This document shows positions 13,986 to 27,925 of a stretch of DNA of 64,000 nt, piece after piece. The notes under the pieces are model-generated. The model saw nothing but the letters and a program-made list of their open reading frames with translations, was not told where the DNA came from and made no database searches. Source of the DNA: Falsirhodobacter flavus (GTDB taxonomy: Bacteria > Pseudomonadota > Alphaproteobacteria > Rhodobacterales > Rhodobacteraceae); contig JARWBI010000001.1 in assembly GCA_029846755.1 (NCBI GenBank), positions 744,001 through 808,000 on the forward strand. The letters are read 5' to 3'. The position numbers and the translations under genes were made by a program. Each line of letters begins with the position of its first letter. Position 1 is the stretch's first letter.

Positions 13986-14077
13986 TGCGATCCGGCTGGT
14001 GGATTTTGTGGTTCGCGGCGATGGCCGCGGCCCTATGGCTTGGCATCGCTTGGTGTGCCGTCTCGAAACCCTTCTGA
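13985..14077 (+). CDS. Tiny phage membrane peptide (30 aa)
   Basis: ATG at 13985 overlaps the upstream stop (TGATG). The 30-residue product is one hydrophobic helix (GWWILWFAAMAAALWLGIAW) with a basic C-terminus. The overlap and the fact that the coding potential is a clean transmembrane helix support translation, but length makes the call uncertain. Confidence 0.45.
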   Translation: MRSGWWILWFAAMAAALWLGIAWCAVSKPF

Positions 14078-14091
14078 CATAGGAGTCTGCC

Positions 14092-14148
14092 TTGGTCCCT
14101 TCATTCACCGTCGCAGTCTGCGGCGATAGCGTCGCCGTGTCCGCATGA
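14092..14148 (+). CDS. Possible leader micro-ORF (18 aa, TTG start)
   Basis: A TTG codon preceded by AGGAG (14081-14085) opens an 18-codon frame whose stop overlaps the ATG of the next gene (ATGA at 14145). The arrangement suggests translational coupling for the downstream Ig-repeat protein. The peptide itself (MVPSFTVAVCGDSVAVSA) has no recognisable function. Confidence 0.35.
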   Translation: MVPSFTVAVCGDSVAVSA

Positions 14149-15953
14149 GCCGTCAATTTGTTTCGATCACCCAAGGCAACACTCGGCCGCCGCTGCGTTG
14201 GACACCTGAGTTGAAGCATGGGTCGCTGCGTGACGGCGGCGTGCGCGTCGTATTCAGCATGACGCTGGATGGCCGCCTGATCGTGGATCAGGGCGAGTGC
14301 AGCATTGAAAACGGGCAGGCCGTCTATGAGTGGCGTCCAGAAGATGTCCGTGTCGATGGCGTCGCGCAGGGAGAGTTCACGGCGATCTATGCCGATGGGG
14401 GCACTGAATCGGATCCCAAGGCTGGATATGTCCACATCACGATAAAGCGTGCTCTGTCTCTTGTCGAAGCTTCGCCTATTGCGCCGCCCGAGCCTGTCGC
14501 ACCGGAACTAACCGGCGGCAGCATTGTGCAAGACGGGGTGGATCTGGTCATCACGCCCCCTTCCGCCACCGGCACCCCGGCGCCGAACGTCGATCGCACA
14601 GTCGCTCGCGCGGGCCAGCCGTTTGCGCTGGTGGGCAATCGGATCGTGAATGCCGCTCTGGACGTGCCCTATGCCGTGACGTGGGTCGCGACGAACGGCG
14701 CCGGATCGGACAGCGTCTCGGTCAGCATCACCATCCCGTCGCCGGAGATCGTCGCGCCCTTCGTCGTGTCGCAGGGATCGCTCGCCATGGACGGTGATGA
14801 TCTGCTGGTAGCATTGCCGGTGTTCGGCGGGGATGAGCCCCTTGCGACAGAGATCGCCGTCCTGCGCGATGGGGCGGACGTGTCTGGCGAGCTTCTGGAG
14901 GGTCGGATCGCCGCTGCGCGTCGCTCGGTGGACGTCACCTATCGAATCGAGGGCGCGGCCGAGAACGCGGGGGGCAGCGTTGAGGCCGATACGGTGGAGC
15001 TTCTGGTCGAGGCGGAGATTGTCATCCCTGAGCCCGCAGCCCCGACCTTCACCGTGCAACCCAGCATCACGCCTGCCACGGGCGAGGAAGGCACAACCTT
15101 CACCTTGTCCGAGGGCACTTCGCCCGGAGGCGTCATCACGTTGGAATACCTGCGGCTGGACGATGCGGACGTCAGCGGCGATCTTGGAGGTCTGGACTAT
15201 GTCTCCACCGCCCCCGGCACGCTGTCGGCGCGCTTCCGCACAACGCACCCCGATGATGCCGCGCTGTTCACCCTGTCGGGTGAGGTGACTGCGGTCATCG
15301 AGGCGACGGTCGAGCCAGAGCCGGAGGATATACCACCGTCTCTGTCCGGCGGATCTTTGACCCTCGCTGGTGACGACGTGGTAATCGTTGAGCCTGACGC
15401 CTCTGGGCAACCGCCGCCCATCATCACCCGGGCCGTGTCGCTGGATGGGTCACCAATAACTGTCGTCGGTCAACGCATATCTAATGCTGCGCCCGGAGAA
15501 TATGAGGTATCTTGGCGCGCTGAAAACGGCATTGGTCAACCTGCGACCCTGACACGCGCTATATCTGTAGAGCCAGAGCCGGTGATGATCCCGCCGACGC
15601 TCGTGGGCGGGTCTGTCGCACAAGACGGGGCGGACTTTGTCATCACAGAGCCTGAGGCGAGTGGGACACCCAGCCCGACCGTCACTCGATCCGTAATGCG
15701 TGACGGACAGGCGGTGACGATTGCAGGGCAGAGGGAGCCAAACGCCCGACCGGGGGAATATGTCGTCACATGGGTCGCGCAAAACGATGTGCCGCCGGAT
15801 GCCACGCTAACTCGCACTGGCACGATCATCTCCCCGCCAAAAGCGCAGCTAGAAGCCACTGCCGGTGGCTTCCAACTCAATCACTACGACGACCCGGGGT
15901 ATGCGCTGACGCCGACCCCCGAAGGTTTTAACTTGGAGGGTGCAAATGGTTAA
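14145..15953 (+). CDS. Phage tail protein with tandem Ig-like repeats
   Basis: A 602-residue protein. Residues 1-110 resemble a BppU-type baseplate/upper-fibre domain (LDGRLIVDQGECSIENGQAV). It then has several tandem Ig-like domains; copies near residues 125-200, 400-475 and 485-560 share GGS-x3-DG-x-D-x-VI-x-P and a closing PGEY-x-V-(T/S)W-x-A-x-N. Acidic linkers (EPEPED) join the domains. Such Ig repeats decorate phage fibres and bind surface carbohydrates weakly. The end overlaps the next gene (ATGGTTAA). Confidence 0.65.
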   Translation: MSRQFVSITQGNTRPPLRWTPELKHGSLRDGGVRVVFSMTLDGRLIVDQGECSIENGQAVYEWRPEDVRVDGVAQGEFTAIYADGGTESDPKAGYVHITIKRALSLVEASPIAPPEPVAPELTGGSIVQDGVDLVITPPSATGTPAPNVDRTVARAGQPFALVGNRIVNAALDVPYAVTWVATNGAGSDSVSVSITIPSPEIVAPFVVSQGSLAMDGDDLLVALPVFGGDEPLATEIAVLRDGADVSGELLEGRIAAARRSVDVTYRIEGAAENAGGSVEADTVELLVEAEIVIPEPAAPTFTVQPSITPATGEEGTTFTLSEGTSPGGVITLEYLRLDDADVSGDLGGLDYVSTAPGTLSARFRTTHPDDAALFTLSGEVTAVIEATVEPEPEDIPPSLSGGSLTLAGDDVVIVEPDASGQPPPIITRAVSLDGSPITVVGQRISNAAPGEYEVSWRAENGIGQPATLTRAISVEPEPVMIPPTLVGGSVAQDGADFVITEPEASGTPSPTVTRSVMRDGQAVTIAGQREPNARPGEYVVTWVAQNDVPPDATLTRTGTIISPPKAQLEATAGGFQLNHYDDPGYALTPTPEGFNLEGANG

Positions 15954-18420
15954 GGTTATCGCGTTCGAGGCAGGCGCGCTGCCTGCTGGCGTCACTGAGT
16001 TTGCAGATCAGACGTTGCCCGTCGAGGCGACGGGCCTTCTCGGCAGCACGTCATATCGGGTCTTCGTGGAGGTAGGTCTCGTTGAGACGGGTGCCGTGAT
16101 CGCGCCCGACCCTATGGAAGTGCAGTTCACCGGCTCGGAAGCGAAGTTTGACAGCACTTCCGTGGCGGGGAACCGTCAGCGAACGATCGATTTCATGTCG
16201 CCTAAAGCGGACGGCACGAGCGATTACATTGTGCTTCGTGGGTTTGTCGCGCAACACGAGACTTCCAATACTTCGAGCTCGTCTCCGGCCACCGACACGC
16301 CGAATACGTCCTTCCGGCTCGCAGGCGGCACGGTCGGCGCTCCGGCTGGCGAAACGGTTGCTGGCTCTATCGCGCTACGCTCCGACGGCGTTGTAAACAA
16401 ACGCAACCAGCATTTGCTGATCTCGAAGTTTGACGCGCCGCCCGCCGAATCCACGGTGGCTTCCTATTATCTTGCCAGCTATCAGGCAGGTACGGTCGTT
16501 GCTGGCTTCCGTTTGAAGAACCACGACTATGACGGCATCACCGGGCACAACAGCCTGACCAATACCATTGAGATCGCAAATGTGCCGAAAGGTGCTGCCG
16601 TGTTCGCTATTGCGGGCGTTTACAATAGTTCAACGGCGTTCGCGTGGGCCGGTGGCCTTGTCGTAGACGCTTCTGAATCCGGCACCGCCGGCGTTCCCAT
16701 CCGCTTTGAAATCGCACACCTCGAAAACTATTCAGGTGGGGCGCTGACCATCACCGCGGCGGGCGCAATGTTCGTTTCTGCTGTCGTTGTGCCTATAGGC
16801 ACAGATGGTGAGGTGCCGCCGCCGCCCGATCCGGGTGAATCGTTCACAGCGCAAAATGGCGATGTGACTTTCACGGGCACGGGCGTGACAGGCGAGGGGT
16901 GGGGCTATACTCGCGATGGACAGATCGGCGCGGCTTCAGTGCCAAACGGTCTTGTGCTGACCTCCGTCTCTCCGGCCACGACGACCGAGAACGGCAAGGT
17001 GAAGCACGGCATGCAGCTTGATATGAACGGTCGCTCGCAAGGTCTCGATCAACGGTCCAAGGGCACCGATCAAAACTTTTTCTGGGACGCCTCAAAAACT
17101 GCCCAGCTGCCGCTGATTGTGCCGCGCGGCTCAATCGTCAACAAGAGTGTCGGAATGCCGGGGCCATTCGTTGAGAAGAACGGAGAGCCAAATGACACCC
17201 GCGCGGGAATTATCAAGCAACATGCTGCAATTATCGCGGCCGACCGTATTCCAGGGCCGAACGACTTCTTGGCACCTGTGGCGGCCAACCTTCGCAAGCT
17301 AGGTGTTTACTATATTACGGTGGACGTGGAGGCCATTGTTGCCACACTGCCGAACGACGTCATCACCGGCGCACCTGCGTTGGACGTTGAAAAGCTGATC
17401 ACCCACCTTGAAGGCAAATTCAACCCAGTCGGCGGGTGGATGAACTCGCCGCTCGCAACGTCCGGATATGAGGTTATGATGCCCCATGACCTCGGTATCG
17501 ATCGGAACTACGGTCAGAACTTGGGCGAACTGATCAATACCTGCCTGGCATTGCTTACAATGGATCTGGCGACCTTCTCACAAAAGGTTCGGATTGCGGT
17601 TTGGCTCATCAGCATGGGCATTCAAACGGATGGCAACAGTTTCACGCCGGATGGCGGCCACTTCCAATGGCCCTCTGGCCCCGTGATCTTCAAACGCTGG
17701 TGTTGCGGCGAGCCGATCAATACGCTGCGCCTGGATCAAACTGGCAACTATGGCGAGCAATTCTTCCTGCACACTCAGCGCACGCTCGACGAATACTACT
17801 TGCCCCACAGCGACCCGAACAAGTTCCACTTGTCGCGGCGTCGCACAGTCCTCGCAGTGAACGGGAACAGCGTGACGCTCAACTTCAACCGCGACCAGGG
17901 CGATGAAGATGTGACCGGCATGAACGGCGTGGATCTTGTGAAGGAGGGTTCGTCGAGCGTTCGGGCGCGCGTTACGCAGGTCAGTGTCGGTTTCCCTGAT
18001 GAAGTCCGGAACATGGATGTTCCTGTCGCTCTAGCAGCACAACCTTCTACGCCGTTCGCGATCGGTGATACTGTCTACATGGTCCCGCGCTACACTATGA
18101 ACATCAACGATCCCGACTGGCACATTCGCTATACGCTCGCATCCATGAACTCGTTCGGCAGCCCTGCGCTCAATGCTAAGTATCGAAGCCTGAGCAACCC
18201 CTCTACCTTCATCTACGCCATGACCCGCCTTGGGTTGCTACCCTCTCTGTTTGAGCCCGTGAAAGCATACACAGAGAAGGTAGCTGCCGGTAACTACCCG
18301 AATGCGGAAAACCAGTTTCCAAGTGTCCATGGCCCGATCGATGGCATTTACTGGATCGGCAGTGTTTGGAATGCGAACTGGTCTCGGGTGAGGGACACGC
18401 CCACTAAAATTGCGGCTTAA
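15946..18420 (+). CDS. Large phage fibre protein, unknown
   Basis: About 824 residues; ATG 15946 chosen because GGAGGG lies 5 bases upstream and it overlaps the previous stop; GTG 15940 is an alternative. The N-terminal 270 residues are beta-rich and Ser/Thr-rich. A proline linker (PPPPDPG) near residue 286 leads to a larger C-terminal domain with WPSGPVIFKRWCCGEP and RRRTVLAVNGNSVTLNF. It is the last tail gene, so probably the distal receptor-binding or depolymerase fibre. No catalytic motif recognised. Confidence 0.6.
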   Translation: MVKVIAFEAGALPAGVTEFADQTLPVEATGLLGSTSYRVFVEVGLVETGAVIAPDPMEVQFTGSEAKFDSTSVAGNRQRTIDFMSPKADGTSDYIVLRGFVAQHETSNTSSSSPATDTPNTSFRLAGGTVGAPAGETVAGSIALRSDGVVNKRNQHLLISKFDAPPAESTVASYYLASYQAGTVVAGFRLKNHDYDGITGHNSLTNTIEIANVPKGAAVFAIAGVYNSSTAFAWAGGLVVDASESGTAGVPIRFEIAHLENYSGGALTITAAGAMFVSAVVVPIGTDGEVPPPPDPGESFTAQNGDVTFTGTGVTGEGWGYTRDGQIGAASVPNGLVLTSVSPATTTENGKVKHGMQLDMNGRSQGLDQRSKGTDQNFFWDASKTAQLPLIVPRGSIVNKSVGMPGPFVEKNGEPNDTRAGIIKQHAAIIAADRIPGPNDFLAPVAANLRKLGVYYITVDVEAIVATLPNDVITGAPALDVEKLITHLEGKFNPVGGWMNSPLATSGYEVMMPHDLGIDRNYGQNLGELINTCLALLTMDLATFSQKVRIAVWLISMGIQTDGNSFTPDGGHFQWPSGPVIFKRWCCGEPINTLRLDQTGNYGEQFFLHTQRTLDEYYLPHSDPNKFHLSRRRTVLAVNGNSVTLNFNRDQGDEDVTGMNGVDLVKEGSSSVRARVTQVSVGFPDEVRNMDVPVALAAQPSTPFAIGDTVYMVPRYTMNINDPDWHIRYTLASMNSFGSPALNAKYRSLSNPSTFIYAMTRLGLLPSLFEPVKAYTEKVAAGNYPNAENQFPSVHGPIDGIYWIGSVWNANWSRVRDTPTKIAA

Positions 18421-19134
18421 TCAGACTTTCGCCCGACGTTGGCGCTGGATCTTCGCGATGCTTATGCCCGCGATCCCGGTCAACAGAAGCAGCGCGCTCG
18501 CTGGAAGCGGAACCGGTGACGGCGGGGGTGCCATTTCGCCGTCGTCGAGGCGGATAGCGGTCAGTCGTTCAACTTCGAAGAACACGTCGGTGGTGACTAG
18601 GACGTCGCCATTGCCCGGATCTGGGAAGAGATAGGTGATGGCGTTGTCCTGACGAAGGAAGCCGAAACGTTCGGCGGTGAACTCGGATTCGAACGTGGAG
18701 CCCTCCGGGAAGGCGAACTCTTGGAAAAATACGTGATTAACGATTTGACCGGGGAAGCGGCCATCAGACAACGATCCATCGATTTGGATCATTCTGCTGG
18801 CTTCCATCTTGATGCCATAGCTATCTAGAGACGCCGTTAGGTCTTTGTCGAATGAGTAGGTGATCTTTCCGGGATCTTTCGTTCCCGCCGCGAAGTCTTC
18901 TTTTGTCGTAACGATCCATTCCCCGTCGCGACCGATGTTCGTGTCAAACACCACATCAATGGTGAACGGCGATCCGACTTGGGGAGCATATAGGTCCGCA
19001 TAGGACCCTCTCTCTCCAATCTTGCCGGTGATGCGCGCATCGAATTGCCAATGCATCGTGGCCGCGTTCGCCGAAGTCGTCATGGGTATTGCTGCCGCCA
19101 GCGCAATCGCGCCTGCCGCCAAAAGCGTCTTCAT
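18421..19134 (-). CDS. VPLPA-CTERM sorting domain protein (prophage cargo)
   Basis: About 237 residues. It has a signal peptide (KTLLAAGAIALAAAIPMTTSANA), a soluble beta-rich middle, and a C-terminal tripartite sorting signal: PVPLPA, a hydrophobic helix (SALLLLTGIAGISIA) and a basic tail (KIQRQRRAKV). This is the VPLPA variant of PEP-CTERM, processed by an exosortase and used for surface or exopolysaccharide-associated proteins in Rhodobacterales. ATG 19134 is preferred, with GGAG 7 bases upstream. It faces against the phage late genes, abuts the last fibre gene and is a likely lysogenic-conversion gene. Confidence 0.8.
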   Translation of the reverse strand: MKTLLAAGAIALAAAIPMTTSANAATMHWQFDARITGKIGERGSYADLYAPQVGSPFTIDVVFDTNIGRDGEWIVTTKEDFAAGTKDPGKITYSFDKDLTASLDSYGIKMEASRMIQIDGSLSDGRFPGQIVNHVFFQEFAFPEGSTFESEFTAERFGFLRQDNAITYLFPDPGNGDVLVTTDVFFEVERLTAIRLDDGEMAPPPSPVPLPASALLLLTGIAGISIAKIQRQRRAKV

Positions 19135-19225
19135 CGTCAATCTCCAAAATTGTTAACGCCGGGACGATGAACCCCGGCCCATGATTCTGGCAAGCGGCTA
19201 TGCCCTTGCTGCGACAGTCTTTCCC

Positions 19226-19250
19226 GCCCCGCCACTGCGCGGGGCTTTTT
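19226..19250 (+). terminator. Rho-independent terminator before lysis genes
   Basis: GCCCCGC pairs with GCGGGGC around a six-base loop, followed directly by TTTTT. It lies between the divergent cargo gene start and the amidase gene, so it would stop plus-strand late transcription crossing the cargo unless antitermination acts. Confidence 0.85.
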
Positions 19251-19263
19251 CATGCGAGGTCGA

Positions 19264-19857
19264 ATGGAAAGGATCATCATCCACTGGACCGCCGGCGCGC
19301 ACCGCGCTTCGGTCGAGGATCGGAAGCACTATCACTTCATTATCGAGGGCAATGGCATCGTGGTGAAAGGGGATCACCCTGTCATCGCGAATGCGGGCAC
19401 GCTCCAATCCGGGAAGTATGCCGCGCATACCTTGAACTGCAACACCGGCAGCATTGGCGTCGCCGTCGCCGCCATGGCGGGGGCCGAGGAACGGCCTTTC
19501 CGCGCCGGGGCCTATCCGATCTTTCCGACACAACTGGACGCACTGGCTGTCCTCTGTGCCGACCTGTGCCGTCGTTATGAAATCCCGGTCACCCGCCACA
19601 CGGTCCTGACGCATGCCGAGGTGCAGCCCACCCTGGGGATCAAGCAGCGCGGCAAATGGGACATCACATGGCTCCCCGGCATGTCGTCGGCGGGTGACCC
19701 GATCAAGGTGGGCGACGATCTGCGCGCCCGGATCACCGATCGCCTTCGTCCCCTGCAGCCGCCGCCGGCACCGCCAGCGCCAGCCCAACCAGCGGCCACC
19801 GTCGGCTGGTGGTCGACCTTCATCGCCGCCGTCGCGCGGCTCTTTCGGAGAACCTGA
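19264..19857 (+). CDS. N-acetylmuramoyl-L-alanine amidase endolysin
   Basis: A 197-residue phage lysin of the amidase_2/PGRP type, which cuts the MurNAc-L-Ala bond of peptidoglycan. Zinc ligands are visible: His7 in IIIHWTAG and His117 in LTHAEV, with Asp133 in GKWDITW as the third likely ligand and Lys131 near it. The C-terminus has a proline/alanine linker and a hydrophobic-basic end (WWSTFIAAVARLFRR). ATG 19264 has GAGG close upstream; ATG 19252 is an alternative. It begins the lysis cassette. Confidence 0.88.
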   Translation: MERIIIHWTAGAHRASVEDRKHYHFIIEGNGIVVKGDHPVIANAGTLQSGKYAAHTLNCNTGSIGVAVAAMAGAEERPFRAGAYPIFPTQLDALAVLCADLCRRYEIPVTRHTVLTHAEVQPTLGIKQRGKWDITWLPGMSSAGDPIKVGDDLRARITDRLRPLQPPPAPPAPAQPAATVGWWSTFIAAVARLFRRT

Positions 19858-19858
19858 C

Positions 19859-20068
19859 ATGATCGGCACCGTCGCACTCGTTGTGCGCTTCATCCTCTTC
19901 CCGCTCTTGGGCGCGCTGGCCGCGGCCGGGATCGGCGTCATCGATGACGCCAATGGCACCTTCACCATCCACATCGAAAACGCGGTCCAGGTGATCTCGG
20001 CCGCCGTCCTCTACGGCTTGACCATCGTCTGGTCGCGTATCGCGAAGAAGCGCGGAGGCAAGACGTGA
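19859..20068 (+). CDS. Putative holin
   Basis: A 69-residue membrane protein starting 1 base after the amidase stop. Two hydrophobic segments (VALVVRFILFPLLGALAAAGIGV and AVQVISAAVLYGLTIVWSRI) are followed by a basic tail KKRGGKT, the usual class II holin layout. Between endolysin and spanin genes this is the expected position. The stop overlaps the next start (GTGA). Confidence 0.7.
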   Translation: MIGTVALVVRFILFPLLGALAAAGIGVIDDANGTFTIHIENAVQVISAAVLYGLTIVWSRIAKKRGGKT

Positions 20069-20295
20069 TCGGGCTGGACGTGGCCGTTGCCGCGATCGTG
20101 GCCGCGATCGGCGCGGTGTGGCTCGCGTTCCGGCGCGGAAAGACCAGAGGCGCGGCCGAGGTCCGGGCCGATCAAGCGGCCGGGTCTATTGCGGCCGAAC
20201 GTCAACGAAAGGAGATCAGGGATGACATCGCTGAAGACGAAGACCTTGCTGCCCGTGCTCGCCGTGGTGGGCTCGTGCGGACTGAACGTCGCTGA
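20065..20295 (+). CDS. Rz-like inner-membrane spanin
   Basis: A 76-residue protein with GTG start overlapping the holin stop (GTGA). One N-terminal transmembrane helix (VAVAAIVAAIGAVWLAF) is followed by a charged alpha-helix (RADQAAGSIAAERQRKEIRDDIAEDEDLA), the i-spanin design that links inner and outer membrane in the final lysis step. The next gene is nested in its 3' part in another frame, typical of Rz/Rz1 pairs. Confidence 0.65.
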   Translation: MIGLDVAVAAIVAAIGAVWLAFRRGKTRGAAEVRADQAAGSIAAERQRKEIRDDIAEDEDLAARARRGGLVRTERR

Positions 20296-20428
20296 TGGTT
20301 GCGCGGGTTGGGAACAGATCCGCGTGGCGGATGCGACGGTGGATTACCTGGCCGCGAACGATCCGACGACGCTTGAAGAGCTGATTGGACATCATGAATT
20401 CGGGAGGGGCCGGGGGTGCTGGCGTTAA
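20222..20428 (+). CDS. Rz1-like small phage lipoprotein
   Basis: A 68-residue protein whose start lies inside the Rz-like gene (overlap 74 bases, different frame), with AGGAGATCAGG upstream. The N-terminus ends in VVGSC, a plausible lipobox. The C-terminal part has CAGWEQIR, HHEFGRGRGCW, a pattern common in small proteins at the end of alphaproteobacterial phage lysis modules. It is therefore likely the outer-membrane spanin partner, although o-spanins are usually proline-rich and this one is not. Confidence 0.6.
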   Translation: MTSLKTKTLLPVLAVVGSCGLNVADGCAGWEQIRVADATVDYLAANDPTTLEELIGHHEFGRGRGCWR

Positions 20429-20431
20429 CGG

Positions 20432-21319
20432 CTACGCATCAGCACCGACTGTCTCCAAAGCGGCTCTGACCGCGTTTTGTTCAAATCCGATCATTGACGG
20501 CAATGACAGCGAGTCGCTGAGGTAGATTACCTCTTTGCCCGAGCCCACCGCGCCGGCGCTGTAATTTAGCGAGTAAAGCACAGGTTCGAACTTTGAATAT
20601 ATCTCAAGAATTGGTTTCACCGCATCGTAAGATACGACCCAATGCGCCTGCCGATAGTTAGAGACCGCAGCCATTACTGCCACATGATCGTTGTGAGCAT
20701 AGGCGTTCCGGTAGAGCTTACTTCCTTTGACGTAATATGGAGGATCTAGATATGTAAGTGCAGTCTCGTCAGCTAATGATCCGGAGAGAAAGTCGAGCGC
20801 GTCAAGGTGGCTCATTGAAATGCGAGATTTAAATGGTGCCAGCGCGCGTATTGCAGCGGATTGCTTCTCACGATCAAACCGAGCATCCAGTCGCCATTTA
20901 CCTGATTGCGAGTAGCCTCCGACAGGACCAGCACCTTCGATGATCCCTGACCTATTTGTGCGATTAAGATAAAAAGTAGCGAACCCGAGCTTTAAAATAT
21001 CCGAGGTGTCTTTTGCACGCCAAATCTCTCGCTGTCGATACCACTCTGAGATACTGAGATCAGCGGTTTCAACCATGCGGCATAATTCGGAATTATAGGT
21101 AAGTGCGCTGAACCAGAACGCCCAAATCGCGTCATCCACATCGTTTAACGAAATGCGGTCAACCAAGCCCGATGATAGCAGCTTCAGCGCGAGGCCAGCC
21201 CCACCAGCGTAGGGCTCACAGTAATGACACTCTCTAATTTTGTTATGGCTCATCAACTCGGCAAAGAATGGGAAAAGCTTCCCTTTACCCCCAGGGTAGC
21301 GCAGCGGGGACGCCAGCAT
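20432..21319 (-). CDS. D12 class DNA adenine methyltransferase
   Basis: A 295-residue N6-adenine methyltransferase of the Dam/D12 family. It has N-terminal SPLRYPGGKGKL, AdoMet motif I CEPYAGGAG, and catalytic motif IV LDPPYY, all in the expected order; length is typical. The start overlaps the stop of the ParB-like gene upstream (ATGA at 21319), so the two are co-translated. Base composition is clearly lower in GC than the flanking genes (one 60-base line at 20581 counts 25 G+C), a sign of recent transfer. No restriction endonuclease of a known type is next to it. Recognition sequence unknown. Confidence 0.85.
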   Translation of the reverse strand: MLASPLRYPGGKGKLFPFFAELMSHNKIRECHYCEPYAGGAGLALKLLSSGLVDRISLNDVDDAIWAFWFSALTYNSELCRMVETADLSISEWYRQREIWRAKDTSDILKLGFATFYLNRTNRSGIIEGAGPVGGYSQSGKWRLDARFDREKQSAAIRALAPFKSRISMSHLDALDFLSGSLADETALTYLDPPYYVKGSKLYRNAYAHNDHVAVMAAVSNYRQAHWVVSYDAVKPILEIYSKFEPVLYSLNYSAGAVGSGKEVIYLSDSLSLPSMIGFEQNAVRAALETVGADA

Positions 21320-22737
21320 CAGATGTTCCGCTTTACAAAGGCATCGATCGTATCTCTTGCCATCATCAGCCTGTGAAAGTTTGGCACGACTGTCGCGTGA
21401 GTACTCAAGTTCATATAAGAAAGATGTGATTTTTTGAACTCTTGTAGCACTTTGACGTCATCGGATGGCAGCTGTCCTTGGCCAATGACCAAGTTGAGAG
21501 CACCCTCGATATCTAAAAGCTTACCTTGCTTATTAAGGCCTTTTTCTTCGATGATCAGCTTCAATATTACCTCGACGATACTCCGGAGTAGTGCAGATCC
21601 TGCCGCTGGGAACGTTTTGGTGTTGATAGTTTTAGCCTCTTTCATCACCTGTCTTAGAGTGAGGTCGTTTCTGGTTAGGGGATAAGAAAATAGCGCATTT
21701 GCTTTCAGCCCGATTGAAGCACCAGATCCACTTGACCCATTCGATCCATTTCCTCCGGCGTGCCCACCGGTGCCTCCCGTACCGCTAGTCCCGCTGGTCG
21801 CTCCTCCACTGCCCACATTGCCGTTGCTTCCGCTAGTGCCACCGGTGCCTTGGGCGGAGGTGCCTCCAGAGCTCCCTCCCGTGCCATTACCTGTCGGCTT
21901 TGGTGGAACATAATCGGCGAAGACTTCTGAGTATGACGCTGTTGCACTAGGACCGCTTTGATCGATGACCGTGCGCTTAACAAGATGTTTCAGTTTACTT
22001 TCGCTATCGCTAGTCGTGAACTTGACTTGCATATTCACTTTGTCGAGTTCCAAGCCCACGAGTTGCTTGTGTCCTGTAGACTGGAGAAATCGAACCGGTG
22101 GGTTGAATTCGATCGAGGGCTGCTGAAGAGCTTCTAGCTCGGCAGGAGTCCAATCCAACTTGAGTGCCTCGATGTAAAGCAAGTATTCGAGCAGCAAGTC
22201 TCGGATAACACCGGGCGTCCGGCCATAAACGGACGCAAGTGTATTTATACCCTTTCCAGCTTGCCAGTCTTCATAGACAGCTTTGCGACTGCCGAGGTAG
22301 CCCCATTTCGATTTATCACCGCGACCAAAATGCGCTCGCGCCATAATGGCCATAAGAGAATCGCGGTTGGGTGCTATGGTCACATCGACGGTGACCAGCT
22401 CGTCCTTCACAGCTTGGTCTACGAGAGGCACCGCAGCCTCGAACTGCGGTGGAGCTGTGAGCTGACCTGTCAGTAACTTGTAAGCTGCGACACGAGTATT
22501 GCCCTCTATCACGACATAACCTTTGCCGTCTTTGACGACATACGGTCGTTCCGCCCCCGGGTTCCGTCCTTCGGTCGCTATAACTTTGAGGAAATCGCTC
22601 AAGCCTTCGTGCTCGAAAAAGTACTCTAGAATGTCATTCTCGTCTGTCAGCTTCGCCTGAGTAACGATGCGAGGATTGCGATCGTCCAGTCGTATCAGGG
22701 ATAGTGCAACACGTTCGTACTTAAATTTTTCGTACAT
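21319..22737 (-). CDS. ParB/Srx-like domain protein with Gly-rich linker
   Basis: About 472 residues from ATG 22737; a TTG at 22803 could extend it by 22. The N-terminal domain has the ParB/sulfiredoxin-fold signature (IRLDDRNPR ... GYVVIEGNTRVAAYKLL, equivalent of the GEHR-type motif), used by ParB CTPases and by ParB-like nucleases. A region with an HTH-like GINTLASVYGRTPGVIRDLL follows. About 65 residues of Gly/Ser/Thr repeats (residues about 285-350) lead to a helical C-terminal domain (ALLRSIVEVILKLIIEE). Coupled to the methyltransferase. Role unknown; a modification-linked defence or regulatory module is an inference. Confidence 0.7.
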   Translation of the reverse strand: MYEKFKYERVALSLIRLDDRNPRIVTQAKLTDENDILEYFFEHEGLSDFLKVIATEGRNPGAERPYVVKDGKGYVVIEGNTRVAAYKLLTGQLTAPPQFEAAVPLVDQAVKDELVTVDVTIAPNRDSLMAIMARAHFGRGDKSKWGYLGSRKAVYEDWQAGKGINTLASVYGRTPGVIRDLLLEYLLYIEALKLDWTPAELEALQQPSIEFNPPVRFLQSTGHKQLVGLELDKVNMQVKFTTSDSESKLKHLVKRTVIDQSGPSATASYSEVFADYVPPKPTGNGTGGSSGGTSAQGTGGTSGSNGNVGSGGATSGTSGTGGTGGHAGGNGSNGSSGSGASIGLKANALFSYPLTRNDLTLRQVMKEAKTINTKTFPAAGSALLRSIVEVILKLIIEEKGLNKQGKLLDIEGALNLVIGQGQLPSDDVKVLQEFKKSHLSYMNLSTHATVVPNFHRLMMARDTIDAFVKRNI

Positions 22738-23130
22738 CAGGAAGCTCGCTTGATCCGTCACAATAGATCCATAAGCAATGCACCGCCCCGAAATTTGTGA
22801 CAAGGGTTGAATCCCTCACGCTGAGGGTGAGAACAGCATTGGATTGGGTTGAAGGCTGGGTCTATCAAGGCGCTGTAAGTGCGCCGCCAGCGCTCAGCGC
22901 CCCCCCACCTCTGGAGTGCCGCGCCCGCCCTGCCTGGTGCGCACTGCTCTCGGTGACATCCGAGACGGTACCGGGCAGGCAGTCGTGCGCTCGCCATCGA
23001 CGTCTTCAACGAAGGCAAGACGGTGCGTTTTTGGTTCCCAAATTCCCGGTCTGTTCCGGCCAAAACAGGCCATTTCCGGGGTTTCGGTGGGAACATCTAT
23101 CGTCGGATATTCAGATGCTTAGCTCTGTTC
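22738..23130. other. Prophage end without convincing gene
   Basis: About 390 bases between the ParB-like gene and the tRNA remnant. It should hold the promoter of the ParB-methyltransferase operon. Visible are the palindrome at 22813-22827, a GGCGCTG...CAGCGCC inverted repeat around 22868-22904, and GGTTCCCA...TGGGAAC at about 23032-23096 close to attR, which might be integrase arm sites or host operator sequence. Short frames here have poor coding character. Confidence 0.5.
22813..22827. promoter_or_regulatory. Palindrome upstream of ParB-methylase operon
   Basis: CCCTCA-CGC-TGAGGG is a perfect 6+6 inverted repeat about 75 bases upstream of the ATG at 22737. Position suggests an operator for autoregulation, perhaps by the HTH-like region of the ParB-like protein. 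Inference only. Confidence 0.4.
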
Positions 23131-23183
23131 ATGTCTCGTTTACACCGAAAATGTCGGCGGTTCGAGCCCGTCACGGCCCACCA
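23131..23183 (+). repeat. Probable attR: 3' half of tRNA-Val(TAC)
   Basis: The sequence can be read as the tRNA 3' half: anticodon loop TTTACAC (anticodon TAC), 3' anticodon stem CGAAA, variable ATGTC, T-stem GGCGG/CCGTC around TTCGAGC, 3' acceptor strand ACGGCCC, then A and CCA at 23181-23183. The 5' half (acceptor GGGCCGT, D-arm) is absent upstream. Prophages that integrate in tRNA 3' ends leave exactly such a partial copy, and it lies where phage genes stop and chromosomal genes start. Confidence 0.75.
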
Positions 23184-23317
23184 TTTCCTTGATCGATCGC
23201 GTGCGGATTGCCGCTGTCCTGCGGGATGTCGGTTTCCTGTTCGCCCATCGATCCGATGCCGAAGATCACGAAACCCAGGACGACAAGCGCGGCGACGAGG
23301 ATAAGGGTGCGGTTCAT
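23171..23317 (-). CDS. Small single-span membrane protein
   Basis: A 48-residue protein with AAGGAG 7 bases before ATG 23317. MNRTLILVAALVVLGFVIFGIG is a transmembrane helix; the rest is hydrophilic. Its last codons overlap the tRNA remnant. It is the first chromosomal gene after the prophage; function unknown. Confidence 0.6.
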   Translation of the reverse strand: MNRTLILVAALVVLGFVIFGIGSMGEQETDIPQDSGNPHAIDQGNGGP

Positions 23318-23453
23318 CTGTGCTCCTTCATGCGGCGCGTGGTCGCGCCTTTGGGGTAATCTGGGCGGCAAGAGGCGTTCGTAAAGGCGCGAGTGGTTTA
23401 CAAATTTGGTCGGCTATGGTTTCAGCATCCTCGGATTTTGCCAGGGGATCGCG

Positions 23454-24356
23454 ATGAGAGCCGTTCTTTCCGTTTGCCTTTCGATCATGCTTGCCATGCC
23501 TGCGGCGGCCGAAATCACCGTGACGCATCGGCAGGGCGAGGTGACCCTGCCTGCTGTTCCGCAGAAGGTGCTGGTGCTGGACTGGGCAAGCGTCGACAAT
23601 CTGGATGCGCTGGGCGTGCCTGTTGCGGGCGTTCCGGGCGGGAACGTCCCGGATTACCTGTCGAAGTATGCGGACGACGATTACCTGAAGGTCGGATCGC
23701 TGTTCGAGCCGGATTTCGAAACGGTGGCGGGGGCGGGCGCGGACCTGATGATCGTCGCCGCCCGCTCTCGCGAGGCGCAGCCGCAACTGAACCAGATTCT
23801 TCCGACCATCGATCTGACGGTGGACAGTGCCGACATGATCGCCAGCGTGAAGGCCAATCTGACGGAGCTGGGTGCGATCTTCGGCAAGGAAGAGCGGGCA
23901 GCGGAACTGGTGGCCGACCTTGATGCCAAGGTGGAGCGGCTGCGCGCGGCGGCGGATGGCAAGGGCACGGCGCTGACTTTGGTGACCAACGGCGGCAAGA
24001 TCGGCGTCTATGGTGAAGGCTCGCGCACGGGCTGGCTGCATTCGGCCATCGGTTTTCCGGCGGTGAAGGAGAACGTGGATGACCGGAGCCATACCGGGGA
24101 CGGGGCCAGCTTCGAATATATCCTTGAAAGCAATCCCGACTGGCTGTTCGTGGTAGATCGCGATGCGGGCGTCGGCGGCGATACCGGGGCGGCGCGGGCG
24201 CTGCTGGACAACGAACTCGTCCGGCAGACGACAGCGTGGCAGAAGGATCAGGTCGTCTATCTGGAGCCGACGCGCGCCTATATCGTGATGAACGGCTATA
24301 CCGCGCTGACCAGCCTGCTTGATCAGGTCCAGAACAAGGTTGCCGCCGCCGAATGA
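23454..24356 (+). CDS. Siderophore ABC transporter, substrate-binding protein
   Basis: A 300-residue periplasmic protein with a cleavable signal peptide (MRAVLSVCLSIMLAMPAAAEI). The class III binding-protein fold is suggested by VLDWASVDNLDALGVPVAGVP near the N-terminus, the long central helix, and the DWLFVVDRD...LVRQTTAWQ...VVYLEP end, as in FatB/CeuE/VctP proteins for catecholate or other ferric siderophores. It is the first gene of a four-gene importer and overlaps the permease by ATGA. ATG 23454 chosen as it starts the signal peptide. No obvious Fur or iron-response box was identified upstream. Confidence 0.85.
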   Translation: MRAVLSVCLSIMLAMPAAAEITVTHRQGEVTLPAVPQKVLVLDWASVDNLDALGVPVAGVPGGNVPDYLSKYADDDYLKVGSLFEPDFETVAGAGADLMIVAARSREAQPQLNQILPTIDLTVDSADMIASVKANLTELGAIFGKEERAAELVADLDAKVERLRAAADGKGTALTLVTNGGKIGVYGEGSRTGWLHSAIGFPAVKENVDDRSHTGDGASFEYILESNPDWLFVVDRDAGVGGDTGAARALLDNELVRQTTAWQKDQVVYLEPTRAYIVMNGYTALTSLLDQVQNKVAAAE

Positions 24357-25306
24357 AGCTGACGCTGGCAGCCCTCGCCACCCTTGCCGTCGCTGTGCTG
24401 AGCCTGTTCGTCGGAGTGAGCGACGTCACCCCGCTGTCGATCCTGAGCAACGAGCGCGCGGCGCAGGTATTCTTTGCCAGCCGCCTGCCGCGCACGCTGG
24501 CGCTGGTGCTGGCGGGCACGTCGATGGCGGTGGCGGGGCTGGTCATGCAGATGATCGTGCGCAACCGCTTCGTCGAGCCGTCTACGGCGGGCACGACGGA
24601 ATCGGCCGGGCTGGGGCTGCTGGTCGTCACGATCCTTGCGCCGGGCTGGCCGCTGATGGCGAAGATGGCGGTGGCGGCGGTCTTTGCGCTGGCGGGGACG
24701 GCGCTGTTCCTGCGCATCTTGCGAATGGTGCCGCTGCGCGACGTGCTGCTGGTGCCGCTGGTCGGGATCATGCTGGGCGGGATCATCGGGGCGATCACGA
24801 CCTTCTTCGCCTATAGGTTCGAGCTTCTCGGCTCGCTCAATGCATGGACCATGGGCGATTTTTCGGGCGTTCTGCGCGGGCGATACGAGCTTTTGTGGAT
24901 CGGGGGCCTGCTGGCCGTGCTGGCCTATCTTGCAGCGGACCGGCTGACGGTCGCGGGGATGGGGCGGGATTTCACCGTGAACCTCGGGATGAATTACCGC
25001 GCTGCCGTGGTGCTGGGATTGGTGATCGTGGCGCTGGTCAGCGCGGTCGTGCTGGTATCGGTGGGGGCGATCCCGTTTCTGGGGCTGGTCGTCCCGAACA
25101 TGGTCAGCATGGTCATCGGCGACAACATGCGCCGCAGCGTGCCTTGGGTCGCGATCACGGGGGCGGCGTTCGTTCTGGTCTGCGACATCGTCGGGCGCAC
25201 GCTGCGATACCCTTACGAGATCCCGATCTCGATGGTGCTGGGCGTCGTCGGGGCGGCGATGTTCCTGGCCCTGCTGCTGCGGAGCCGTCACCATGCGCGC
25301 GCATGA
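24353..25306 (+). CDS. Siderophore ABC transporter permease 1 (FecCD family)
   Basis: A 317-residue inner-membrane protein of the FecCD/BtuC type with about nine hydrophobic segments. The family hallmark SRLPRTLALVLAGTSMAVAGLVMQ near residues 43-65 (RxPR...AGxxLAxxGxxxQ) is present, as is the coupling region LGMNYR...VGAIPFLGLVVPN. It pairs with the next permease as a heterodimer, equivalent to FatD/VctD. Start overlaps the binding-protein stop; the end overlaps the next gene by 14 bases. Confidence 0.88.
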   Translation: MKLTLAALATLAVAVLSLFVGVSDVTPLSILSNERAAQVFFASRLPRTLALVLAGTSMAVAGLVMQMIVRNRFVEPSTAGTTESAGLGLLVVTILAPGWPLMAKMAVAAVFALAGTALFLRILRMVPLRDVLLVPLVGIMLGGIIGAITTFFAYRFELLGSLNAWTMGDFSGVLRGRYELLWIGGLLAVLAYLAADRLTVAGMGRDFTVNLGMNYRAAVVLGLVIVALVSAVVLVSVGAIPFLGLVVPNMVSMVIGDNMRRSVPWVAITGAAFVLVCDIVGRTLRYPYEIPISMVLGVVGAAMFLALLLRSRHHARA

Positions 25307-26258
25307 GCGGCGGGCGCGGGGCGCGCTGTGCATCCTTGGCGTGATGGCGGCGCTGTCCTGCATCTGTTTCATGGTGCTGGGGGTGAAGGCAAATTGGACC
25401 TTCATCCTGCCGTTCCGCGGCACCAAGCTGCTGGCGCTGGTGCTGGTCGCCTATTCCATCGCCGTGTCCACGGTGCTGTTCCAGACGGTGACGAACAACC
25501 GCATCCTGACCCCGTCGATCATGGGGTTCGACGCGCTGTTCGTGCTGATCCAGACGATGGTGGTGTTCTTCCTCGGCTCGGTGGCGCTGGTCGCGGTCGA
25601 TCCGGTGCCGAAGTTTCTGGCCGAGGTGGTGGTGATGACCGCCTTCGCCGGGCTGCTGTTCCGCTGGCTGTTTCTGGGGGCCGAGCGCAGCCTGCATCTG
25701 ATGGTGCTGGTCGGGATCGTCTTCGGCATTCTTTTTCGCAACCTTTCAGCCTTCATGGCGCGGCTGCTGGACCCGAATGAGCAGGTGACGCTTCAGGATG
25801 CGCTGTTCGCCAGCTTCAACCAGATCGATGCGACGTTGCTCTGGGTGTCCTGCGTCATCGTGGCGGCGGTCAGCCTGCTGGGGCTGCGCCTTGTCCTTAG
25901 CCTTGATGTGCTGGCGCTGGGCCGGGCGCAGGCGGTCAGCCTCGGCGTCGATTACAGGCGGACGGTGGCGATGATCCTTGCCATCGTCGCGGTGATGGTC
26001 GCGGTCTCGACGGCGCTGGTGGGGCCGATCACCTTCTTTGGGCTGCTGGTCGTCAGTCTTGCACATCTGATGGTCGGGTCGGGGCGGCATGTCTGGGTGC
26101 TGCCCGCCTCGGTGCTGCTGGGGATCATCTGTCTTGTCGGGGGGCAAACGGTGCTGGAGCGAGTCTTCGCCTTCGACACCGCGCTTGCCATCGTCATCGA
26201 ATTCCTGGGGGGCCTGATGTTCATCGCCCTTCTGATGAAAGGAGCCGCCCGCAGATGA
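25293..26258 (+). CDS. Siderophore ABC transporter permease 2 (FecCD family)
   Basis: A 321-residue FecCD-type permease (FatC/VctG-like), second half of the membrane heterodimer. The conserved region KLLALVLVAYSIAVSTVLFQTV replaces the usual RLPR block, as is typical of the C-type partner. The coupling region LGVDYRRTV and TALVGPITFFGLLVVSLA are visible. The start lies 14 bases inside the preceding gene and the stop overlaps the ATPase start (ATGA). Confidence 0.87.
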   Translation: MRAHERRARGALCILGVMAALSCICFMVLGVKANWTFILPFRGTKLLALVLVAYSIAVSTVLFQTVTNNRILTPSIMGFDALFVLIQTMVVFFLGSVALVAVDPVPKFLAEVVVMTAFAGLLFRWLFLGAERSLHLMVLVGIVFGILFRNLSAFMARLLDPNEQVTLQDALFASFNQIDATLLWVSCVIVAAVSLLGLRLVLSLDVLALGRAQAVSLGVDYRRTVAMILAIVAVMVAVSTALVGPITFFGLLVVSLAHLMVGSGRHVWVLPASVLLGIICLVGGQTVLERVFAFDTALAIVIEFLGGLMFIALLMKGAARR

Positions 26259-27013
26259 TCGCCGCCCAGCAGATCCGGAAGACTTATGGAACCATGACGG
26301 TGCTGGATGGGGTGACGCTGCGGATACCCGCCCGTGGCATCACCTCTATCATCGGGCCGAACGGGGCGGGGAAGTCGACGCTGCTGTCGATCATGGCCCG
26401 GCTGATGGAGGCGGATGACGGGCGCGTCACCGTGGACGGGCTGGATGTGGCAAGCGCAAAAAGCGACGTGCTGGCCCGCCGCCTGTCGATCCTGCGGCAG
26501 GAGAATCACATTTCATCGCGCCTGACGGTGCGCGATCTGGTTGGTTTCGGGCGCTATCCCCATTCCAAGGGGCGGTTGACGCCCGAGGATGTGGGCCATA
26601 TCGACCGTGCCATCGGCTACTTGCATCTTGAAGATCTGGCGGATCGGTTTCTGGACGAACTTTCGGGCGGCCAGCGCCAGCGCGCTCATATCGCCATGGT
26701 GCTCTGTCAGGACACCGACTACGTCCTGCTGGACGAGCCGCTGAACAACCTGGACATGCGGCATGCGCGTGGGATGATGCAGCTGCTGCGCCGTGCGGCG
26801 GACGATCTGGGCAAGACGATCGTGCTGGTGATGCACGACATCAACTTCGCTTCGTGGTATTCGGACGCGATCGTCGCGATGAAGGCGGGCAGGGTGGCGC
26901 ATCACGGATCGCCCGCAGAAATCATCCGGCCGGAGGTGCTGTCTGCCATCTATGACATGCCCATCGCCGTGCAGGATGTGGGCGGGAAACAGGTCGCGCT
27001 CTATTACGAGTGA
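26255..27013 (+). CDS. Siderophore ABC transporter ATP-binding protein
   Basis: A 252-residue ATPase that powers the importer. Walker A GPNGAGKST (about residues 34-42), Q-loop LRQENH, signature LSGGQRQR, Walker B YVLLDEP and H-switch VMHD are all intact, in the expected order. Best compared with FatE/VctC/FepC. Start overlaps the permease stop (ATGA), so the four genes form one operon. Confidence 0.92.
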   Translation: MIAAQQIRKTYGTMTVLDGVTLRIPARGITSIIGPNGAGKSTLLSIMARLMEADDGRVTVDGLDVASAKSDVLARRLSILRQENHISSRLTVRDLVGFGRYPHSKGRLTPEDVGHIDRAIGYLHLEDLADRFLDELSGGQRQRAHIAMVLCQDTDYVLLDEPLNNLDMRHARGMMQLLRRAADDLGKTIVLVMHDINFASWYSDAIVAMKAGRVAHHGSPAEIIRPEVLSAIYDMPIAVQDVGGKQVALYYE

Positions 27014-27023
27014 CTGGACATTT

Positions 27024-27038
27024 GTTCATGTTCCGTTC
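27024..27038. promoter_or_regulatory. LexA (SOS) box upstream of mmcB
   Basis: GTTC-ATGTTCC-GTTC is an exact match to the alphaproteobacterial LexA operator GTTC-N7-GTTC and ends 11 bases before the mmcB start. mmcB is an SOS-regulated, mitomycin-inducible gene in Caulobacter (established), which supports a functional site. About two chance matches are expected per 64 kb of random sequence. Confidence 0.75.
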
Positions 27039-27049
27039 ATATATCGGTC

Positions 27050-27490
27050 ATGGATATGGAACCGATCCTCCCGGGGTTTCGTCTTGCAAGGGGCGTCGCA
27101 CGGCATCTGCGCGGCCATGATTTCGTGACCGTTACCGAACTCGTGCCCGCACCGGGGCTGCGGGTGGATGTGATGGCGCTTGGGCCGAAGGGAGAGATCT
27201 GGATCGTCGAATGCAAATCCAGCCGCGCTGACTATCTTTCGGACCGCAAATGGCAGGGCTATCTGGAATGGTGCGACAGGTTCTTTTGGGCGGTAGATGC
27301 CGATTTCCCGACCGAGCTGTTGCCTGCGGAAACCGGGTTGATGCTTGCCGACGGCTATGATGCCGAGATCATGCGCATCGGGCCCGAGGCGCGCCTTGCA
27401 CCGGCGCGGCGCAAGGCGGTCACGCATTGCTTCGCCCGCCACGCGGCGGCGCGGCTTCAGGGCCTGCGCGATCCCGGCTTCGGGCTTTAG
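27050..27490 (+). CDS. mmcB: MmcB family DNA repair protein
   Basis: A 146-residue protein of the MmcB family (mitomycin C inducible). The core RVDVMALGPKGEIWIVECKSS has the D...E-x-K arrangement of PD-(D/E)XK nucleases, followed by KWQGYLEWCDRFFWAVDADFP, characteristic of the family. A LexA box lies directly upstream. The stop overlaps by 4 bases the stop of the convergent DUF6324 gene. Probable role is cross-link repair. Confidence 0.85.
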   Translation: MDMEPILPGFRLARGVARHLRGHDFVTVTELVPAPGLRVDVMALGPKGEIWIVECKSSRADYLSDRKWQGYLEWCDRFFWAVDADFPTELLPAETGLMLADGYDAEIMRIGPEARLAPARRKAVTHCFARHAAARLQGLRDPGFGL

Positions 27491-27693
27491 CGCTTTTTCT
27501 TCGGCGTGTCGTCCATGGCGCGCGCGCGTTCGGCGGCGGCCAGCAGTTCCTCGGCGATTTCCTCGGCTTCTTCCGGATCGAAGTCGAGCGGCAGGTCCAC
27601 GCCCTCAGCCTCGACATAAATGCGGACCATCCCGGCGCTGGTGGGGCCGATCTGAAGGTTCGCGGCGACTTCGCTTTGCTTGTTGATGCCCAT
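27487..27693 (-). CDS. DUF6324 family protein
   Basis: A 68-residue acidic protein. MGINKQSEVAANLQIGPT and GMVRIYVEAEGVDLPLDF, then an EEAEEIAEEL helix, match the small DUF6324 family found next to mmcB in Rhodobacterales. It ends in a basic KKKR. Function unknown. SD AAGGAG lies about 8 bases before the start. Confidence 0.8.
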   Translation of the reverse strand: MGINKQSEVAANLQIGPTSAGMVRIYVEAEGVDLPLDFDPEEAEEIAEELLAAAERARAMDDTPKKKR

Positions 27694-27798
27694 TGACGCT
27701 GTCTCCTTTTGACCGATCAGGTAGCTGTCGCAGAAACGCCATGCAAGTGTCGGAAGGGTCTTGCATTCCGATTTCAGCAGCGTTACATCGCCCGCAGT

Positions 27799-27875
27799 GC
27801 CGACTTAGCTCAGTTGGTTAGAGCACCAGATTGTGGATCTGGGGGTCCCCCGTTCGAGCCGGGGAGTCGGTACCA
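27799..27875 (+). tRNA. tRNA-His (GTG)
   Basis: A full cloverleaf of 77 bases including CCA: acceptor GCCGACT/AGTCGGT, D-stem GCTC/GAGC, anticodon stem CCAGA/TCTGG with loop TTGTGGA (anticodon GTG), T-stem CCCCG/CGGGG with TTCGAGC. Base 73 is A and the base before position 1 is T, so the usual G-1:C73 identity pair is not encoded, as known for many alphaproteobacteria. Confidence 0.96.
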
Positions 27876-27925
27876 TTCCTCTCAGGCACTTGAAAAATAA
27901 GATGCGGCACCGTGGTGCCGCGGGC

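What the first reader, a model, noticed from the sequence alone, without database searches (positions are those of the whole stretch)
20432..22737. Prophage-end ParB-like plus D12 methyltransferase cargo
A two-gene, translationally coupled, AT-richer operon opposes the phage genes right beside attR, the usual location of prophage defence or conversion cargo. The ParB/Srx-fold protein with a long Gly/Ser/Thr linker and a helical C-terminal domain has no chromosome-partition context and is tied to an adenine methyltransferase. I do not recognise this as a described restriction, BREX or Dnd system; it could be a methylation-guided nuclease/NTPase defence, anti-restriction or regulatory module.
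Basis: partly seen in the sequence, partly recalled or inferred. Interest (0 to 1): 0.72.

Follow-up and report, generated by a model that had tools for sequence, protein, structure and literature searches.

The report
Prophage-borne PD-lambda-5 anti-phage defence pair
Next to one end of a dormant virus in this bacterial genome sits a two-gene cassette, a DNA methylase plus a ParB-like protein with a toxin-like tail, that is a distant relative of PD-lambda-5, a pair already shown in the laboratory to protect E. coli from phages, so it is a real defence cargo but not a new kind.

Summary
Two overlapping minus-strand genes (21319-22737 ParB-like, 20432-21319 D12 adenine methylase) form the lowest-GC stretch of the window. 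They lie at the right end of a 42.9-kb prophage whose attR (23133-23183) repeats the 3' part of a tRNA-Val gene. The pair is not undescribed: PADLOC models name both proteins PD-Lambda-5 (A 1.7e-24, B 4.8e-104), a system found by functional selection in E. [quoted passage not shown] HEPN fused to ParB, and HEPN in operon with ParB and methylase, were tabulated in 2013. The window's A protein has a ParB/Srx-like N-terminal domain, a low-confidence Gly/Ser/Thr linker and a HEPN-like C-terminal bundle (weak Foldseek matches; canonical HEPN motif absent). The pairing recurs: of the 80 best viral relatives of the methylase, 36 have this ParB-like gene within 700 bases and 41 an AAA ATPase instead. 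Best reading: methylation marks self DNA, and the ParB-HEPN protein acts on DNA or RNA when the mark is missing. Family identity is well supported; the mechanism is inferred. Low novelty; the exchangeable-effector pattern is the most interesting part.

The parts
21319..22737 (-). Component A: ParB/Srx-like N-terminal domain, possible HTH at about residues 155-190, Gly/Ser/Thr linker (about 279-352), HEPN-like C-terminal bundle (359-472)
   Evidence: PADLOC PD-Lambda-5_A 1.7e-24; AF2 models; Foldseek; HTH only sub-threshold and partly pLDDT below 50
20432..21319 (-). Component B: D12-class adenine-N6 DNA methyltransferase with EPYAGG (35-40) and DPPY (192-195)
   Evidence: Pfam PF02086 4.6e-13; PADLOC PD-Lambda-5_B 4.8e-104, also MTase_II 1.9e-84; D192 P193 P194 Y195 invariant in the 11 aligned sequences, window included
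21317..21321 (-). TGATG overlap of A stop and B start (likely translational coupling)
   Evidence: sequence
23133..23183 (+). attR: duplicated 3' part of tRNA-Val(tac)
   Evidence: 50/51 identical to the tRNA-Val end at G000:C11:724278-724328; intact tRNA found there, none in the 3080-base locus around this end
19252..19857 (+). phage N-acetylmuramoyl-L-alanine amidase, the gene that the pair faces with small ORFs between
   Evidence: DNA match (13-14% of the query, 72-75% identity) to the annotated amidase of Paracoccus phages Pkon1 and Pthi1

Best explanation
A divergent member of the PD-lambda-5 anti-phage system carried as cargo by a prophage. Component B methylates an adenine in a specific motif and so marks the lysogen's DNA. 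Component A is a ParB/Srx-like nucleotide- and DNA-binding sensor joined by a flexible linker to a HEPN-like effector. When unmarked DNA enters, or when marking collapses during infection, A is switched on and either cuts DNA through its ParB-like domain or cuts RNA through the HEPN-like domain, stopping the phage and perhaps the cell. Shown here: gene pair, family membership by profile, fold class of the N-terminal domain (and, weakly, of the C-terminal one), prophage location, recurrent linkage. Shown elsewhere for the E. coli system: phage protection. Inferred: methylation as the self mark, nucleotide switching, HEPN as effector, the trigger.
For: Both proteins match PADLOC PD-Lambda-5 models; so do 15 of 15 members of the A alignment, but most of these had been found with one of those models, so this is partly circular. 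One order, TGATG overlap. An E. coli pair in a P2-type prophage has the same order, matches the models at 1.5e-167 and 7.9e-122, and its B is 44% identical to the window's. Linkage: of 10 genomes with strong B (E<=1e-80, a cut chosen after seeing the list; the window's own included) among 385 sampled, 9 have A in the neighbourhood and the tenth ends at a contig edge; 4 weaker B hits have none. In the 80 best viral B loci 36 have A within 700 bases. ParB-like: profile to 4umk 1.6e-4, Foldseek top hit ParB-CDP 6sdk E 2.3e-3 prob 1.00. HEPN-like tail: 16 of the first 18 Foldseek rows are chains of seven entries titled HEPN or known to me as HEPN toxin-antitoxin. N21, R23, G79, N80, R82, H136, H447 identical in 24 of 24 rows. 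E. [quoted passage not shown]).
Against: No experiment exists on this copy, and I did not see the sequence of the tested E. coli clone; the link runs through PADLOC names. A is 23% identical to the E. coli relative (104 of 446 aligned positions) and BLAST aligns mainly one 86-residue stretch. Fold matches are weak: no match at E<=0.001 for either model, TM-scores for the full model 0.11-0.23 of the query, C-terminal best E 0.18, with cytochrome b562 and designed bundles also in the list. The canonical HEPN RX4-6H motif is in 0 of 24. H447 is H in 12 of 15 of the other alignment, three gapped there. A occurs without B: 7 of 15 genomes with A had no B-like gene in the fetched flanks, one of them a 5-kb contig. 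In viral loci the commonest partner of B is not A but an AAA ATPase (41 against 36 of 80). The E. coli system acted more strongly on T-even phages than on lambda-vir, and the paper notes that T4 resists most RM systems, which simple cutting of unmethylated DNA does not explain. Whether the E. coli system is abortive is marked only in a figure that I did not see.
Confidence: 0.72

Rival explanations
1. Guarded toxin-antitoxin, a narrower form nested in the best explanation (so the odds overlap): B's methylation, or B itself, holds A in check; phages that degrade host DNA, block the methylase or drain SAM release A, whose HEPN-like domain kills the cell. B is the antidote and not a sorter of self from non-self DNA.
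For: HEPN-like C-terminus resembling HepT toxins; founding paper calls it RM+Abi; stronger on T-even phages than on lambda-vir; in phage ValB1MD-2 the C-terminal part is a separate gene next to the methylase (the second gene assigned by eye).
Against: A exists without B in 7 of 15 sampled genomes, odd for an obligate antidote unless another methylase serves; RX4-6H absent.
Confidence: 0.3
2. Phage self-protection or regulation: B is an orphan methylase shielding the phage from host restriction or timing phage genes, and A is a ParB-like regulator or partition factor.
For: Orphan D12 methylases are common in phages (recalled); B also matches PADLOC oMTase at 1.6e-14; ParB-like fold; possible HTH.
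Against: Opposes phage genes and has foreign GC; no ParA-like ORF next to it (by eye); HEPN-like tail; the E. coli system was selected as anti-phage.
Confidence: 0.07
3. A decayed or inactive remnant of the system.
For: T81 where 23 of 24 aligned sequences have R; A diverged from the E. coli relative.
Against: Both frames open and coupled; the residues identical in 24 of 24 are kept; T81 is shared by L064 and by the closest relative L068, which is 62% identical over 248 residues.
Confidence: 0.08

Closest known systems
PD-lambda-5 (E. coli, Vassallo et al. 2022, PMC9519451; passages and section 7 seen)
   Same: PADLOC models of both parts match the window pair and an E. coli pair in the same gene order; D12 methylase; prophage-borne
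   Different: A only 23% identical over 446 aligned positions; window A has an extra segment of about 25 residues with sub-threshold HTH scores; slot is the prophage end facing the amidase, not the place beside the portal gene seen in the one E. coli genome opened
ParB-HEPN fusions, and MAE_28990 HEPN genes in operon with ParB and DNA methylase (Anantharaman et al. 2013, PMC3710099, table passages)
   Same: Same combination of ParB-like domain, HEPN and DNA methylase
   Different: MAE_28990 is a separate gene in the operon; whether the fused Saro_3948 is the same family was not tested
Paracoccus phage vB_PkoS_Pkon1 genes p76-p75
   Same: A and B relatives in the same order, facing the amidase with one small gene between
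   Different: A tail has a GNxxKH form of the motif (by eye); B 42.5% identical
Marinobacter phage AS1 genes 27-26
   Same: A and B relatives in the same order, one small gene away from the integrase
   Different: B 34.4% identical
Type II restriction-modification
   Same: A DNA methylase (B also matches PADLOC MTase_II at 1.9e-84) paired with a putative nucleic-acid-cleaving partner
   Different: Partner matches no restriction-endonuclease model in the four libraries scanned; ParB/Srx-like and HEPN-like domains instead

Membership tests
PD-lambda-5 | Component A homologue | tested here: met
   PD-Lambda-5_A 1.7e-24; best stretch residues 7-259
PD-lambda-5 | Component B homologue | tested here: met
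   PD-Lambda-5_B 4.8e-104, residues 3-280 on positions 5-282 of 291
PD-lambda-5 | A and B adjacent, one operon | tested here: met
   TGATG overlap; same-strand A upstream within 700 bases in 33 of 80 viral B loci
PD-lambda-5 | Prophage-borne | tested here: met
   att repeat at tRNA-Val, integrase-like ORF
PD-lambda-5 | Protects against phages | not testable with these tools
   Shown only for the E. coli system
HEPN superfamily (C-terminal domain of A) | HEPN helical bundle | tested here: inconclusive
   Model mean pLDDT 85; HEPN chains lead the list but best E 0.18, prob up to 0.97
HEPN superfamily (C-terminal domain of A) | Catalytic RX4-6H motif | tested here: not met
   No R at -5 to -7 of H447 in 24 of 24; N, Q or H at -4 in 22 of 24; R385 in an earlier helix in 21 of 24. 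Motif definition recalled
ParB/Srx superfamily (N-terminal domain of A) | ParB-like fold with G-x-x-R box | tested here: met
   EGNTR 78-82, G79 N80 R82 in 24 of 24; 4umk 1.6e-4 by profile; Foldseek 6sdk E 2.3e-3. Against: no Pfam ParB_N match for P0001, ParB_N only 0.11 for the AS1 relative
Chromosome or plasmid partition ParB | Adjacent ParA and parS sites | tested here: not met
   No ParA-like ORF next to it; nearest seen is 7 kb away outside the prophage (by eye, 14000-30000 only); parS not searched
D12-class adenine methyltransferase | Pfam model and DPPY motif | tested here: met
   PF02086 4.6e-13, 49.9 bits against cut-off 22; DPPY 192-195. NCBIfam dam TIGR00571 below its cut-off
Dnd or BREX system | DndACDE/FGH or PglZ/BrxC genes | tested here: not met
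   No PADLOC hit of the two proteins is of these systems; neighbouring ORFs only read by eye

The most novel reading that the evidence does not exclude
The PD-lambda-5_B clade of methylases is a shared self-marking module into which prophages plug different effectors: ParB-HEPN (this window), an AAA_15-like ATPase, or a HerA-linked protein. If the same mark licenses all of them, methylation would be a common safety catch for unrelated killing proteins, and phages could swap effectors without changing the mark.
Probability: 0.35. Interest if true: 0.55.

Novelty: new member of a known kind. Interest (0 to 1): 0.27.

Why it matters
It puts a name and a testable domain model on a cassette whose larger gene has no Pfam or NCBIfam match, places PD-lambda-5 in a tRNA-Val prophage with a cargo slot shared with Paracoccus phages, and shows that its methylase clade is also paired with another kind of protein, which makes the question 'does the methyl mark license the effector?' directly testable by swapping partners in laboratory strains.

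Tried and rejected
Close relatives in viral contigs from single proteins: none confirmed. P0001 by tblastn at 1e-5: no match in plasmids, one record (AS1) in phages. Order-wide scan with P0001: matches in 9 of 292 genomes, the window's own included; 5 of the 9 lie mainly in the low-complexity linker region of the query and were not taken as relatives; the local profile search therefore used a linker-masked query. Family names for A in Pfam and NCBIfam: none for P0001; the NCBIfam parB_part model matches 2 of the 15 A members at up to 2.3e-4. Promoter and terminator scan of 20250-23200: 2 of each, shuffles 2.1 and 2.3, so no support for a promoter. The slot region in the genus: 4 of 7 genomes match the 2-kb amidase region, three of them only in short pieces, so no empty-site comparison. 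Paper searches for ParB-like + D12 + methyltransferase + anti-phage, and for ParB + HEPN + methyltransferase + phage defence + prophage: 0 papers each. An Acinetobacter paper with a methylase and AbiD describes a putative type II RM system (passages); whether it is related was not tested. Partition function, Dnd and BREX rejected (see membership).

Rows dropped: the A alignment used for folding holds the window plus 23 of the 36 viral A loci; the other 13 (near repeats, or cut or split genes) were left out by choice.

Full report
OBSERVATION. A runs from an ATG at 22737 to a stop at 21321-21319; B starts at 21319, giving a TGATG overlap, and ends at 20432. The pair has 50.8% GC, against 62.9% for window 1-20400 and 65.3% for 23401-64000. 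Of 617 windows of the same size at 100-base steps, only one, starting at 20501 and so on the pair itself, is as low; the lowest that does not overlap the pair is 56.3%.

PROPHAGE END. Near 23150 I recognised by eye the end of a tRNA. A search of the window's own genome with 80 bases gave, besides itself, one long match: 51 bases at 98% at C11:724278-724328; 14 further matches are short, the best at E 0.012. ARAGORN finds an intact tRNA-Val(tac) there and none in the locus around the window end. A 380-aa integrase-like ORF (by eye) lies 21 bases beyond that copy, on the minus strand. So attL and attR are 42.9 kb apart (C11:724278 to 767183), and 395 bases separate the start of A from attR. Relatives show that this is a cargo slot: Paracoccus phage Pkon1 has an A-B pair facing the amidase, and Paracoccus phage Pthi1 has a DNA polymerase IV gene there, also opposing. 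Both phages match the window's amidase region over only 13-14% of the query at 72-75% identity.

WHAT IT IS. Pfam finds MethyltransfD12 in B and nothing in A. PADLOC names A PD-Lambda-5_A (best 1.7e-24) and B PD-Lambda-5_B (4.8e-104), with MTase_II second for B at 1.9e-84. All 15 members of the A alignment, the window's included, match PD-Lambda-5_A models; most were found with one of those models, so this is partly circular. Near-identical copies (at least 99%) of one viral-contig pair, L111, are in 22 of 5426 complete E. coli genomes; it matches the models at 1.5e-167 and 7.9e-122, and in the one genome opened it sits in a P2-type prophage between the replication endonuclease and the portal gene. 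Window B is 44% identical to it over 282 residues. Window A is 23% identical (104 of 446 aligned positions); BLAST aligns mainly 86 residues at 33%, E 4e-5 for the single comparison. I did not see the sequence of the clone tested in the paper.

The founding paper (PMC9519451; [quoted passage not shown] A second paper repeats this view (PMC10799925, one passage). A 2013 survey of HEPN domains (PMC3710099, passages) lists fusions of HEPN to ParB and a HEPN family in operon with ParB nuclease and DNA methylase genes. Of 11 papers that hold the name PD-Lambda-5 I saw titles and abstract starts, and passages of two; none of the titles announces a mechanism. Most subscription journals are not in that library.

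ANATOMY OF A. The AF2 model (24 sequences, mean pLDDT 68, pTM 0.44) has a confident N-terminal domain, a linker under 50 at 281-353, and a C-terminal bundle mostly at 74-89. Foldseek's best matches are ParB bound to CDP (6sdk, E 2.3e-3, prob 1.00), then other ParB-family proteins and sulfiredoxins, with SbnI and free serine kinases lower; no match reaches E 0.001, and TM-scores are low. The profile of 15 A proteins matches ParB 4umk at 1.6e-4. For the C-terminal domain alone (mean pLDDT 85) 16 of the first 18 rows are chains of seven entries: three are titled HEPN, two MntA-HpeT, and two (7bxo, 5yep) I know as HEPN toxin-antitoxin complexes. The best E is 0.18, and four-helix proteins such as cytochrome b562 appear lower (50 of 305 rows shown). 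Residues identical in 24 of 24 rows: N21, R23, G79, N80, R82, H136, H447. In the other alignment H447 is H in 12 of 15, and the three exceptions are gapped there and carry a GNTTKH by eye. The textbook HEPN motif RX4-6H is in 0 of 24; N, Q or H stands at -4 in 22. Window A, L010, L053, L068 and L077 have an extra segment near residues 155-190; different HTH models score it sub-threshold in window A, L068 and L077 (E 0.003 to 0.18), and none in L010 or L053, and part of it is below pLDDT 50. In Vibrio phage ValB1MD-2 A is two genes, a ParB-like one and, by eye, a C-terminal one, followed by the methylase, so the halves look separable.

CONSERVED TOGETHER. Class sample, 385 genomes: A model (PDLC04017, E<=1e-5) in 15, B model (PDLC04018, E<=1e-40) in 14. 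Of the 10 with B at E<=1e-80 (a cut chosen after seeing the list; the window's own genome is one), 9 have A in the neighbourhood: in G386 B is on the opposite strand with a gene between, in G381 the order is B then A. In the tenth, G443, the contig ends 162 bases upstream of B and no A was found. The 4 weaker B hits have no A in the 2.8-3.8 kb held. Viewed from A, 8 of 15 genomes have B near and 7 do not. Viral contigs: 432 relatives of B, best 80 kept. Of these 80, within 700 bases of B: A upstream on the same strand 33, A on the opposite strand 3, an AAA ATPase 41 (31 upstream, 10 downstream), neither 3. After clustering B at 90% identity, 47 clusters counted on one member each: 24, 3, 18, 2. 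The A profile came from genomes outside this set plus phage AS1 and the window; the AAA profile was built from the set itself.

MECHANISM. I think most likely that B's methyl mark tells self from non-self and that A is the responder. Which half of A acts, DNA cutting by the ParB-like half or RNA cutting by the HEPN-like half, is open; the RM+Abi phrase of the founding paper and the HEPN-like fold favour the latter, the missing RX4-6H speaks against it. The close rival, B as antidote to A, uses the same parts, is nested in the best explanation, and is not separated by sequence data.

VERDICT. Observation confirmed; the system is a known kind, and this is a divergent member. The part worth following is that one methylase clade is paired with unrelated partners. 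I did not establish whether the AAA-methylase pair is described: PADLOC gives the ATPases only broad matches to many ATPase families (best 25 of about 100 shown each), and one paper search found nothing relevant.

Noticed in passing
L069-L076, L081, L082, L087, L091, L094, L096, L099, L120, L131, L146 and others; L149 (Citrobacter phage phiNP): The same methylase clade sits within 700 bases of an AAA_15/AAA_21-type ATPase gene of about 565-595 aa in 41 of 80 viral loci; a related pair is in 85 of 5426 E. coli genomes at 80-90% identity. Possibly another methylase-licensed defence pair.
   Followed up: partly
L150 3986-8428; L142 4986-7267: The methylase faces a roughly 460-aa gene whose product looks NurA-like by eye and, in L150, a gene noted as HerA helicase: a third kind of neighbour.
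   Followed up: no
L048, L050, L051, L056, L065: Short ParB-like genes (360-387 aa) are followed by a 310-355-aa gene with no confident Pfam match and, nearby, a methylase that varies (D12 in L048 and L051; C5-like or other by eye in the rest). It resembles the 2013 'HEPN in operon with ParB and methylase'; the L048 gene matches PADLOC PDC-M38A at 1.1e-19.
   Followed up: partly
L174 6717-7919 (Paracoccus phage Pthi1): A DNA polymerase IV gene occupies the slot that holds the A-B pair in Pkon1 and in the window.
   Followed up: no
window 18421-19140 (-): ORF inside the prophage whose C-terminus looks like a VPLPA/PEP-CTERM sorting signal (by eye), opposing the phage genes: possibly another cargo gene.
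   Followed up: no
window 23406-27013 (+): Iron-siderophore-type ABC transporter operon (by eye) directly outside attR.
   Followed up: no
window 29890-30681 (+): ParA-like ATPase ORF about 7 kb from the pair and outside the prophage (by eye).
   Followed up: no
L068 3653-4531 (-) and 4965-5855 (+): Closest relative of the window pair found (A 62% over 248 residues, B 55%) has A and B divergently oriented, with A's open frame ending before the C-terminal domain.
   Followed up: partly
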